Shown in pieces: positions 20,614 to 22,822 of a DNA stretch of 64,000 nt. The notes below the pieces were generated by a model that was given only the letters and a program-made list of their open reading frames with translations, was not told where the DNA came from and ran no database searches. Numbering within the stretch: the stretch's first letter is position 1; the number at the start of each line of letters is the position of its first letter. Made by a program: the position numbers and the translations under genes. This DNA is from Gammaproteobacteria bacterium (GTDB lineage: Bacteria; Pseudomonadota; Gammaproteobacteria; Steroidobacterales; GCA-2729495): positions 1 to 64,000 of the forward strand of contig JASJBD010000006.1 of the NCBI GenBank assembly GCA_030066665.1. The letters run 5' to 3'.

Positions 20614-20614
20614 A

Positions 20615-20675
20615 CAGGGGGTCGAACCGAGGTTTCTGAACCGGATCTGATCAAAAACCTCGGTTCGACCCCCTG
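20615..20675. repeat. 61-bp palindromic element between pntB and DUF3106 gene
   Basis: Two perfectly complementary 21-base arms (20615-20635 and 20655-20675; CAGGGGGTCGAACCGAGGTTT and its complement) are separated by 19 bases. It fills almost the whole gap between two converging genes. The stem is too long and lacks a T-run for an ordinary intrinsic terminator, though it could still end or stabilise both transcripts. The GGGGTCGAACC-type arm looks like a dispersed REP-like palindrome, which is a family-level guess since only one clear copy lies in this window. Confidence 0.8.
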
Positions 20676-20682
20676 TGGATAA

Positions 20683-21228
20683 TTACGGCTGACCGCCGTT
20701 ACCGCCCTGTTGCCCCTGTTTCTGGCGACGCTGGGCCTCCTGGCGCATGCGCTCGCGCTGCTCGGGGGTCAGGTTCTGCCAGCGTTGCCGAAATGCTTCA
20801 CGCTGATCCGGCGTGAGGCTCTGCCACCGCTTTCGCATCTGCTGCCGCTGATCCGGCGGTAGCTGGCGGAATCGCTGAAACTGCTGTCGAACGCGAGCCT
20901 GCTGCTCGGGCGTCAGGTTCTGGTAACGCTGAAACTGCTGCCGCACGCGAGCCTGCTGCTCGGGCGTCAGGTTCTGCCAGCGCTTGAAGCGGTTGCGCGC
21001 CTGAGCGCGCTGCTGCGGCGGCATCTTCAACCACCGCTCGGCGCCCGCAGCGAGTCGCTGCTGTTGCGCGGGCGACAACTCGGCCCAGCGCTCCTGCGCG
21101 CCGCCCAGCATGCGCTGCTGCTCGGCGCTCAGTGAATCCCAGCTCAGGCCCTCGTCCGCCCAACCCAGGCCCGGCACTATGACGCACAGGCCGAGCAGCA
21201 CGATCAGCCGTCTAGTCCTGTGCATCAT
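20683..21228 (-). CDS. DUF3106-like exported protein with LTPEQ repeats
   Basis: A 181-residue exported protein: a signal peptide (hydrophobic LIVLLGLCVIVPGLGWADE) and then at least seven tandem modules of 15-18 residues of the form (L/P)(T/S/P)P(E/D/A)Q(Q/R), an amphipathic Arg/Gln-rich helix and a W or F near the end; two adjacent modules are nearly identical (NLTPEQQARVRQQFQR). The mature chain is strongly basic and ends in a QGQQGGNGGQP tail. DUF3106 is the closest family; the repeated LTPEQ resembles the LTxxQ motif of the CpxP/Spy periplasmic chaperones. The start is the first of two tandem ATGs at 21228 with GGAGAAAG upstream; it overlaps the preceding gene by 17 bp. Last gene of the ECF operon. 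Confidence 0.75.
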   Translation of the reverse strand: MMHRTRRLIVLLGLCVIVPGLGWADEGLSWDSLSAEQQRMLGGAQERWAELSPAQQQRLAAGAERWLKMPPQQRAQARNRFKRWQNLTPEQQARVRQQFQRYQNLTPEQQARVRQQFQRFRQLPPDQRQQMRKRWQSLTPDQREAFRQRWQNLTPEQRERMRQEAQRRQKQGQQGGNGGQP

Positions 21229-21451
21229 CAGCTTTCTCCGCCATGCGCGGCACCAATATATCGCCGGCTCCGTCCGGCGGCATGTCGTCAAAAAACTCTG
21301 TCCAGCCATCCTCGGCTTCGAGCGACAGAAACTCCAGAAATTCCTGGTCGAACTCCGCCTCGGATAGCTCGTCCGTCGACGCGGCATCGTCCGCTGCCAG
21401 CGCGGGGGCCACAGCCATCCACGCAGCCAGCATACTGAACCAACGGGTCAA
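21212..21451 (-). CDS. Small acidic exported protein of the ECF operon
   Basis: A 79-residue protein of unknown family: a signal peptide (TRWFSMLAAWMAVAPALAADD) and a highly acidic mature part (DELSEAEFDQEFLEFL, EDGWTEFFDDMPPDGAGD). I choose the TTG at 21451 because it overlaps the stop of the upstream gene (TTGA) and has GGAGG 7 bases before it; an ATG at 21433 would shorten the signal peptide and has no ribosome-binding site. The frame is open farther upstream only as a shadow. It lies between a putative anti-sigma gene and a basic repeat protein, so a regulatory or partner role in the periplasm is likely (inference). Confidence 0.65.
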   Translation of the reverse strand: MTRWFSMLAAWMAVAPALAADDAASTDELSEAEFDQEFLEFLSLEAEDGWTEFFDDMPPDGAGDILVPRMAEKADDAQD

Positions 21452-21825
21452 CCCGCGGCCTCCATGTCCATGCTCTCCGCAGCGAGCCAGACATAGAATT
21501 CCAGGTCTTCGAGCATGTCGAGGTTTTCCTCGGCGAAAATCACTTCGAGCTCCGGCGTGGTCGTTGCGGTGGGTATTTCGCCCGGCGCAGTCGGATCCGG
21601 CGCCGCGCGCCACAGGCTGATCGCTATCGCGCCAACCGCCGCTGCAGTTAACACGCCCCACAACGGCGTCAGACGTCTTGCCGACGACAACTCGTCGAGC
21701 GCTGCCTGCCGTGCGCGATTCAGTTTCGACCGCGTTGCTGCATCCAGGTCTTCTACACTGTCACGCAACAGCCCAGCGGCCCGCCGCTCGAAATCCGAAT
21801 GTTGTTCCTGTTGTGTGCTGTTCAT
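21448..21825 (-). CDS. Putative transmembrane anti-sigma factor
   Basis: A 125-residue protein without a recognised zinc anti-sigma motif. The N-terminal 50 residues are polar and helical (FERRAAGLLRDSVEDLDAATRSKLNRARQAALDEL), a single transmembrane helix spans about residues 54-73 (PLWGVLTAAAVGAIAISLWRA), and the C-terminal part is acidic with LDMLEDLEFYVWLAAES. That plan, and the ATGA overlap with the upstream ECF sigma gene, mark it as the likely cognate anti-sigma factor: cytoplasmic sigma-binding N-terminus, periplasmic sensor tail. The start is the ATG at 21825; sequence upstream of it belongs to the sigma gene in another frame. Confidence 0.65.
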   Translation of the reverse strand: MNSTQQEQHSDFERRAAGLLRDSVEDLDAATRSKLNRARQAALDELSSARRLTPLWGVLTAAAVGAIAISLWRAAPDPTAPGEIPTATTTPELEVIFAEENLDMLEDLEFYVWLAAESMDMEAAG

Positions 21826-22433
21826 GTCCAATGTTCTCCGAGACTCTCGCGCAACCGGTGTACCGCACGCGAGTAATGCGTCTTCACACTGCCGCTGGAG
21901 CAACCCATCGCCGCCGCCGTCGCCGCGACATCGAGGCCCTCCACGGTTCGCAACAGGAATGCCTGTTGCTGTCGAGCGGGAAGCGCCTGGATGGCTGCCT
22001 CCAGCTCCGACATCGCGCCGTCGATTGCAACGCGATGTTCCGGCTGCGCCTGTAAGCCGTCCGCCGCGCGAGCCACCGGGTCCGGCATGTCATCATCATC
22101 GCGGCGGTTGTCCAGCCAGCCGAATACTTTGCGACGAACTGTTTGACGCCGTTGGTGATCGCGAATCCGATTTTGCAGGATTCGGTAGAACAACGGCGCC
22201 CATTCGTCGGTCGGGCGTTCGCCGTATTTGCGGGCCAGGCTGATCATCGCATCCTGGACGATATCGAGAGCGTCATCGCCGTCGCCTACCGCAATCTGGG
22301 CGATGCGAAACGCGCGCTTTTCGACGCCCGCCAGGAAGCGGTCCATGGCCTGTCGCTGGTCCAGATTCAGCTTCTCCCGCTCGGCTGCCGCACTCGCGCC
22401 GTTCTCCATCAGGGACAGAGCCTGACCGTTCAT
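21822..22433 (-). CDS. ECF-type RNA polymerase sigma factor
   Basis: A 203-residue sigma-70 family factor. Region 2 is seen at about residues 33-105 (AFRIAQIAVGDGDDALDIVQDAMISLARKYG, APLFYRILQNRIRDHQRRQ), and region 4 at about 142-195 (IQALPARQQQAFLLRTVEGLDVAATAAAMGCSSGSVKTHYSRAVHRL), a complete helix-turn-helix. It heads a four-gene operon in which every junction overlaps. It should direct core polymerase to the promoters of an envelope or stress regulon and probably its own; I could not define a convincing autoregulated promoter in the 22434-22822 gap. The ATG at 22433 is used. Confidence 0.88.
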   Translation of the reverse strand: MNGQALSLMENGASAAAEREKLNLDQRQAMDRFLAGVEKRAFRIAQIAVGDGDDALDIVQDAMISLARKYGERPTDEWAPLFYRILQNRIRDHQRRQTVRRKVFGWLDNRRDDDDMPDPVARAADGLQAQPEHRVAIDGAMSELEAAIQALPARQQQAFLLRTVEGLDVAATAAAMGCSSGSVKTHYSRAVHRLRESLGEHWT

Positions 22434-22822
22434 AGCATACCCCTTGACCTGGCGAACGCCTGGTTACTCTCGACCGACACGCATCCATGCGCCGGGCCAA
22501 AACCAGCGTTCATTCGGGCAATATAACGTTGCCAACGGGATCCGGTTGACCGCGCGACGGGGGGTTTCGGCGACTGTTATTCACATCACCGTTCGATAGG
22601 GCGAGGCCTTAGACGCTGTTTCGCAACGTCGGCCGACGAATAGAATATAGCTACTTGTTTTATATAAATTTTTTCTTATCGGTCAAGAATTGATCAAATT
22701 GTTACATAACGCATTGGTATGCGGCTTGCGGCCGATTTGCCCCACGCTATCCACAGAGTTATCCACAAATCCTGTGGAAAAACCCTGCGCCAGCGGAACT
22801 TGCCCGGATCGGGGACTTGATC
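22434..22822. other. Intergenic regulatory region between ECF operon and priA
   Basis: A 389-bp gap with no credible gene. The left part is GC-rich and should carry the promoter of the sigma operon. Bases about 22630-22710 are sharply AT-rich (TTTTATATAAATTTTTTCTTAT and neighbours). The right part holds three DnaA-box-like 9-mers and leads into priA. This is the largest and most AT-rich gap in the window. Confidence 0.7.
22747..22781. promoter_or_regulatory. Cluster of three DnaA boxes
   Basis: CTATCCACA (22747-22755, one mismatch), TTATCCACA (22759-22767, perfect consensus) and TGTGGAAAA (22773-22781, the complement TTTTCCACA, one mismatch) lie within 35 bp. They flank an AT-rich tract on its priA side. 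This could be a DnaA-regulated promoter, a DnaA-titrating site, or part of a replication origin. Confidence 0.6.

What the first reader, a model, noticed from the sequence alone, without database searches (positions are those of the whole stretch)
20683..22433. Four-gene ECF module ending in an acidic and a basic LTPEQ-repeat exported protein
Every junction overlaps (4, 4 and 17 bases), so the four products are made together: ECF sigma, one-helix putative anti-sigma, a 79-residue acidic exported protein, and a 181-residue basic exported protein made of seven or more LTPEQ-type helical modules. LTxxQ is the signature of the CpxP/Spy periplasmic chaperones. I infer an envelope-stress circuit in which the two exported proteins of opposite charge bind each other or the anti-sigma tail and set its activity. 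I know of no description of this layout.
Basis: partly seen in the sequence, partly recalled or inferred. Interest (0 to 1): 0.68.

Follow-up and report, generated by a model that had tools for sequence, protein, structure and literature searches.

The report
Self-controlled envelope-stress sigma factor module
A four-gene unit found across many bacteria encodes a gene-switching protein, its membrane-bound brake and two exported proteins, one an unnamed conserved family; DNA signals suggest that the unit switches itself on together with other cell-envelope genes.

Summary
In detail: four minus-strand genes overlapping by 4, 4 and 17 bases encode an ECF sigma factor, a one-helix DUF3619-like anti-sigma, a 79-aa acidic exported protein and a 181-aa basic DUF3106 protein. 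It is more than a local oddity. Of 80 loci found through the sigma factor alone, 80 have the anti-sigma, 79 DUF3106 and 61 the acidic protein, in that order, with record titles reaching Nitrospira and Geobacteraceae. The acidic protein (core LEFLG-x-W) is an unnamed family under purifying selection; 29 of 29 relatives examined lie in this operon. A promoter, GTCAACC-N15-CGTT, precedes the sigma gene in the window and in 66 of 100 loci, so autoregulation is well supported. Among close relatives, 29 of 40 fetched further copies of the promoter lie just before an exported-protein gene (0 of 20 control sites): lipoproteins, DUF4382, EF-hand, PepSY, M48 protease, DUF3106-like repeats. An envelope-stress circuit is therefore supported by sequence. 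How the exported proteins act is not: folding showed no docking, acid and DUF3106 charges do not compensate, and DUF3106 is not CpxP/Spy by Pfam. I infer that both feed back on the anti-sigma tail. New variant of a known kind.

The parts
22524..22550 (-). ECF-type promoter, -35 GTCAACC, 15-base spacer, -10 CGTTA, about 90 bases before the sigma start codon
   Evidence: Only match in the window at up to 1 mismatch (shuffles mean 0.22, 17 of 100 shuffles with at least one); same motif upstream of the sigma gene in 66 of 100 homologous loci at spacer 15
21822..22433 (-). ECF sigma factor (203 aa)
   Evidence: NF006550 235.5 bits over cut-off 173; Sigma70_r2 and r4_2 over cut-off
21448..21825 (-). 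single-helix anti-sigma factor, divergent DUF3619-like (125 aa)
   Evidence: DUF3619 E 0.0074, below cut-off; 21 of 23 alignment members hit DUF3619 at E<=0.1, best 1.2e-5; anti-sigma role inferred from position and topology
21484..21552 (-). conserved acidic aromatic motif of the anti-sigma periplasmic tail, ELEVIFAEENLDMLEDLEFYVWL
   Evidence: F110 invariant and W113 nearly invariant in 23 sequences; a relaxed F-x-x-W-L-like pattern in 135 of 139 tails
21212..21451 (-). acidic exported protein (79 aa, TTG start, signal peptide by eye), unnamed conserved family
   Evidence: no Pfam or NCBIfam family at E<=1; no shared family in 17 members; in 61 of 80 sigma-anchored operons; pN/pS 0.17-0.53 in 12 pairs of relatives
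21290..21343 (-). conserved core of the acidic protein, EFLEFLSLEAEDGWTEFF
   Evidence: L42 invariant and L39 nearly invariant in 17 sequences; relaxed five-letter core in 106 of 108 family members at E<=1e-4, stricter LEFLG-like pattern in 104 of those 106
20683..21228 (-). basic exported 18-residue-repeat protein, DUF3106 (181 aa)
   Evidence: PF11304 111.1 bits, cut-off 24.3; period 18 in 60 relatives; helical repeat fold of a relative (L074) predicted at pLDDT above 90

Best explanation
An autoregulated envelope-stress ECF module. Shown by sequence: the operon order, its conservation, its own promoter, and copies of that promoter in front of exported-protein genes in related genomes. Inferred: the anti-sigma holds the sigma at the inner membrane with its short cytoplasmic part; its acidic, aromatic periplasmic tail (LExxEDLEFYxWL) is the control handle; stress in the envelope makes the tail free the sigma; the sigma then makes more of itself, of the anti-sigma and of the two exported proteins. 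DUF3106, an Arg-rich helical repeat, and the small LEFLG-x-W protein act in the periplasm on the tail or on each other, as a feedback pair in the manner of RseB on RseA or CnrX on CnrY, while the other regulon products repair or protect the envelope. I put about 0.8 on an autoregulated envelope regulon and about 0.55 on the exported pair being regulators of this sigma rather than only products of it.
For: Conserved order: 109 of 139 loci with all four genes, 61 of 80 sigma-anchored loci. The acidic family was met only here: 29 of 29 fetched non-window loci from the profile search have anti-sigma before and DUF3106 after it, 28 also the sigma hit. Promoter GTCAACC-N15-CGTT in 66 of 100 loci at 9 of 11 letters or better, 62 of them at 10 or better; of 411 control stretches 4 reached 9 and none 10; also in Trichlorobacter, Geobacter OR-1 and a Nitrospira record. 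66 exact sites in 60 genomes (own and 59 relatives) against 20 for the reversed pattern; 29 of 40 fetched secondary sites have an exported ORF starting 5-90 bases downstream, 0 of 20 controls, with the same families recurring. In the window's own genome two of three secondary exact sites precede an exported protein: an M48 protease lipoprotein and a glycine-zipper-like lipoprotein. Tail motif in 135 of 139 anti-sigmas. Tail and acidic-protein net charge covary, rho 0.44 (not corrected for kinship).
Against: No interaction seen: in both read-through folds the acidic protein (pLDDT 42-57) and the tail (42-65) stay low while the DUF3106 core is above 90. Acidic core against anti-sigma tail is not significant (hhalign probability 2.7%, E 0.017). 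Acid and DUF3106 charges do not compensate. The acidic gene was not found in 19 of 80 sigma-anchored loci, with 12-18 gains or losses on the sigma tree, so it is dispensable, though a few may be missed. 25 of 100 loci gave no good promoter by this rule: 18 none at all, 7 scoring 8 or less. With the relaxed pattern the own genome has 16 sites, as many as the control, and in 12 named genomes there are 15 exact sites against 14 control, 3 of the 15 before an exported ORF, so the wider regulon is shown only for the window's close relatives.
Confidence: 0.55

Rival explanations
1. The two exported proteins are only effectors: the sigma-anti-sigma pair senses stress by the tail alone (for example by regulated proteolysis), and DUF3106 and the acidic protein are co-transcribed envelope protectants, such as a polyanion-binding scaffold or chaperone and its partner.
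For: DUF3106-like repeat proteins occur as separate targets of the same promoter (L199, L203, L208); other targets are plain envelope proteins; the acidic gene is lost repeatedly; no docking on the tail seen.
Against: The place directly after the anti-sigma is kept in records titled as four phyla, as for known co-regulators; the tail motif is the most conserved periplasmic feature of the anti-sigma and calls for a partner.
Confidence: 0.33
2. A metal or redox sensor module of the CnrYXH kind, DUF3106 being the metal-sensing partner.
For: Same plan: ECF sigma, small one-helix anti-sigma, periplasmic helical protein (CnrYXH described in PMC7689651, passages read); one of 56 alignment members hits Metal_resist weakly.
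Against: Window DUF3106 has no His or Cys in its mature part and 31 of 138 mature DUF3106 proteins have none; Metal_resist E 0.26, far below cut-off; none of the ten regulon proteins scanned is a metal exporter.
Confidence: 0.07
3. The acidic reading frame is a spurious overlap and the unit is an ordinary three-gene operon.
For: TTG start, short, no family.
Against: Conserved core in 106 of 108 family members, pN/pS below 0.55 in 12 of 12 pairs, present in records titled as several phyla.
Confidence: 0.02

Closest known systems
CnrYXH (Cupriavidus metallidurans cobalt/nickel response)
   Same: ECF sigma, small one-helix anti-sigma and a helical periplasmic partner from one locus; the cytoplasmic part of the anti-sigma is about 50 residues, near the size below which PMC7406223 (passages read) suspects class II anti-sigmas such as CnrY
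   Different: The third product here is DUF3106, an exported Arg-rich repeat protein without His or Cys in the window, not a membrane-anchored metal sensor; a fourth conserved exported protein; predicted target genes are envelope proteins, not an efflux pump
RpoE-RseA-RseB (E. coli sigma E)
   Same: Envelope regulon and a periplasmic protein acting on the anti-sigma tail (mechanism from PMC4598750, passages read); the autoregulation of rpoE is recalled
   Different: No RseB family among the Pfam hits of the DUF3106 protein at E<=1; the anti-sigma is DUF3619-like; a proteolysis cascade was not tested
CpxP/Spy LTxxQ periplasmic chaperones
   Same: Exported, helical, LTxxQ-like motifs (family traits recalled)
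   Different: Pfam LTXXQ does not match the window protein (E<=1) and matches 1 of 56 alignment members weakly; DUF3106 is an 18-residue repeat; Foldseek gave no PDB relative at E<=0.001, which is not proof of a different fold

Membership tests
ECF sigma factor, NCBIfam NF006550 (PRK09047) | profile score over the curated cut-off | tested here: met
   235.5 bits, cut-off 173
Autoregulated ECF operon | ECF-type promoter conserved upstream of its own sigma gene | tested here: met
   window 22550..22524; 66 of 100 loci; activity itself not measured
DUF3106 (PF11304) | profile score over the curated cut-off | tested here: met
   111.1 bits, cut-off 24.3
DUF3619 (PF12279) | profile score over the curated cut-off | tested here: not met
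   P0002 17.1 bits, cut-off 22.2; 21 of 23 alignment members hit at E<=0.1 and several anti-sigmas beside acidic-protein hits pass the cut-off, so a divergent relative
Anti-sigma factor | binds and inhibits the cognate sigma | not testable with these tools
   inferred from gene order, size and topology
CpxP/Spy (LTXXQ, PF07813) | LTXXQ profile match | tested here: not met
   no hit for P0004 at E<=1; 1 of 56 alignment members at E 0.0014
CpxP/Spy (LTXXQ, PF07813) | Spy-type fold | tested here: inconclusive
   Foldseek: no PDB chain at E<=0.001; VIA second look of 41 chains, best Z 3.8
CnrYXH metal-sensor system | Metal_resist-type periplasmic sensor with metal ligands | tested here: not met
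   Metal_resist 11.9 bits, cut-off 29.2; no His or Cys in mature P0004
CnrYXH metal-sensor system | response to Co or Ni | not testable with these tools
   needs a reporter

The most novel reading that the evidence does not exclude
The small LEFLG-x-W protein is a secreted, soluble stand-in for the anti-sigma's own periplasmic tail: made with the sigma factor, it competes with the tail for the basic DUF3106 repeat and so times how long the stress response stays on. This would be an ECF circuit with a built-in secreted decoy of its anti-sigma.
Probability: 0.15. Interest if true: 0.75.

Novelty: new variant of a known kind. Interest (0 to 1): 0.6.

Why it matters
A review read here in passages counts 157 ECF groups, 102 of them without mechanistic or functional insight (PMC8103513). 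This work gives one such unit a conserved gene set, a promoter sequence, a predicted envelope regulon and a new exported protein family, so that sigma activity, regulon and partner binding become directly testable, also in carriers with named strains such as Trichlorobacter thiogenes or Pleionea.

Tried and rejected
CpxP/Spy membership: rejected at the profile level. Metal-sensor reading: disfavoured. Spurious acidic frame: rejected. Acidic core as a copy of the anti-sigma tail: hhalign E 0.017, probability 2.7%, not significant, kept only as the novel case. Charge compensation between the acidic protein and DUF3106: none. Docking by read-through folds: none seen; mixed alignments with rows for both partners were tried in the script box and discarded because MAFFT misplaced the rows, so only DUF3106 rows were used. 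PDB by sequence: best E 0.07, read as no relative. Foldseek: no hit at E<=0.001; VIA second look best Z 3.8, FliG-like, read as nothing. Viral contigs with the anti-sigma: none.

Papers. DUF3106, DUF3619, PRK09047: 0 hits each. ECF + anti-sigma + LTXXQ: 2 hits, listing only, not relevant by title. ECF classification + genomic context: 2 hits, of which PMC8103513 read in passages. CnrX/CnrY/CnrH: 8 hits, of which PMC7689651 and PMC4598750 read in passages. ECF + anti-sigma + DUF4382: none of the 8 listed holds DUF4382; PMC7406223 from that list read in passages. GTCAACC + ECF sigma: 3 hits, listing only, actinobacterial by title. CpxP/Spy + ECF: 1 hit, listing only.

Rows dropped or not examined. 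One search listed 50 places, 30 loci examined. One search listed 42 places, 30 fetched (one the window itself), 12 not examined. One search kept 80 of 587 confirmed relatives, itself a capped list. One search listed 66 promoter sites: by comparison with the DUF3106 places I count 19 at own operons and 47 elsewhere; 40 of these were fetched and 7 left out (one in a near-duplicate genome, six others). L032 was dropped as a copy of L001. Some loci are near-duplicates (for example L008/L009, L021/L061, L024/L062). The acidic HMM was trained on the DUF3106- and acid-anchored loci, so only the 80 sigma-anchored loci are a fair count; one of their 61 acidic hits is weak (L082, E 0.017), and two loci counted as lacking it (L092, L098) leave room for a diverged copy. 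Promoter counts use 100 loci, 97 distinct. The tree used 133 rows. The exported-ORF rule is a simple one of my own.

Full report
Check of the observation. The four minus-strand genes are exactly as described: sigma 22433..21822, anti-sigma 21825..21448, acidic protein 21451..21212 with a TTG start, DUF3106 protein 21228..20683, overlapping by 4, 4 and 17 bases. The sigma passes NCBIfam NF006550, the last protein passes DUF3106, the anti-sigma hits DUF3619 only weakly (21 of 23 alignment members hit it at E<=0.1) and the acidic protein hits nothing at E<=1.

Conservation. DUF3106 is in 42 of 60 genomes, the own one included. A profile of 17 acidic proteins found 41 of 274 genomes of the class, the own one included; all 29 fetched non-window loci have anti-sigma before and DUF3106 after it, 28 also with a sigma hit. 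Of 80 loci picked by the sigma profile in named records, 61 have all four genes in order, 18 lack the acidic gene, one has only sigma and anti-sigma. Record titles include Woeseiaceae, Steroidobacteraceae, Lysobacterales, Pleionea, Candidatus Nitrospira defluvii, Trichlorobacter thiogenes, Geobacter sp. OR-1 and a Nitrospinaceae MAG; MAG titles may mislead. On the sigma tree of 133 rows the acidic gene is scattered over most of the tree and needs 12-18 changes, fewer than in any of 500 shuffles; the root was placed for drawing only. I read this as an old member with repeated loss, partly perhaps missed by the profile. Acidic genes are under purifying selection, pN/pS 0.17-0.53 in 12 pairs.

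Anatomy. By eye and hydropathy the anti-sigma has a cytoplasmic part of about 50 residues, one membrane helix and an acidic tail with a conserved LExxEDLEFYxWL motif (a relaxed F-x-x-W-L-like pattern in 135 of 139 tails). The acidic protein has a conserved P-D-x-E-[FL]-L-E-F-L-G-x-W core and a variable tail. Median net charges are -14 (acidic, 106), +16 (DUF3106, 138) and -11 (tail, 139), but 14 of 106 acidic proteins lie between -4 and +1. DUF3106 has an 18-residue period in 60 relatives and a confidently predicted helical-repeat core, pLDDT above 90, with no PDB match by Foldseek at E<=0.001 and none by sequence below E 0.07.

Promoter and regulon. Upstream stretches of the sigma genes share GTCAACC-N15-CGTT(A): 66 of 100 loci at spacer 15 with 9 or more of 11 letters, 9 more at spacer 16 with 10 or 11, 7 weaker and 18 without; of 411 control stretches 4 reached 9 and none 10. 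The window copy lies at 22550..22524. The exact pattern occurs 66 times in 60 genomes, its reversal 20 times. I fetched 40 of the 47 sites outside own operons: 29 have an exported ORF (17 lipobox, 12 signal peptide, by a simple rule written in the script) starting 5-90 bases downstream, against 0 of 20 reversed-pattern sites. Families recur in different genomes: a glycine-zipper-like lipoprotein (5 genomes, one of them outside the rule), a DUF4382-type lipoprotein (5, with a second DUF4382 kind in 2), Cys/Lys-rich ENPEKC repeats (6), DUF3106-like MSEEER repeats (3). Further cases include EF-hand, PepSY, DUF1800 and, in the window's genome, an M48 protease lipoprotein. Sites are not independent where genomes are close. 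Of the own genome's three secondary exact sites, one (L172) precedes no exported ORF. Against a wide regulon everywhere: the relaxed pattern is no commoner than its control in the own genome (16 and 16), although four of its 16 sites precede an exported ORF, and in 12 named genomes there are 15 exact sites, own operons included, against 14 control, 3 of them before an exported ORF.

Mechanism. Autoregulation and an envelope regulon rest on sequence evidence only. That the exported pair acts on the anti-sigma tail is inference from order, conservation and the known CnrYXH and RseA-RseB plans (PMC7689651, PMC4598750, passages read). Tests here did not support direct docking: joined read-through chains gave pLDDT 42-57 for the acidic part and 42-65 for the tail, but those parts had no alignment rows and contacts could not be viewed. 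Acid and DUF3106 charges do not compensate; tail and acid charges covary, rho 0.44, not corrected for kinship.

Novelty. The searches named in Tried and rejected found no paper naming DUF3106, DUF3619 or PRK09047; subscription papers and supplements were not searched, and the ECF classification may already list this clade as a group without function. The parts are of known kinds; the conserved four-gene layout, its promoter and the unnamed acidic family make it a new variant.

Noticed in passing
20614-20676: A 63-base hairpin (-51 kcal/mol, z -11) lies between pntB and the DUF3106 gene; a 15-base piece of its arm occurs 9 times on 7 contigs of the own genome, two of them being the two arms here, reversed control 0, so it looks like a dispersed repeat that may serve as a two-way terminator.
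   Followed up: partly
L182-L187 (for example L184, G030:C59): A family of exported Cys/Lys-rich proteins with FCxxNPxKCxE repeats sits behind the same promoter in six relatives; Pfam gives only a weak Prefoldin hit for the one scanned.
   Followed up: partly
L199, L203, L208; G044:C14, G057:C24, G058:C17: Second DUF3106-like repeat genes away from the module, some directly behind the same promoter.
   Followed up: partly
L074:3534-4067: This anti-sigma seems by eye to carry a doubled cytoplasmic domain.
   Followed up: no
L013: An anti-sigma whose operon lacks the acidic gene has a lengthened tail with the motif seemingly repeated (LLEFYEDIEFYEWL).
   Followed up: no
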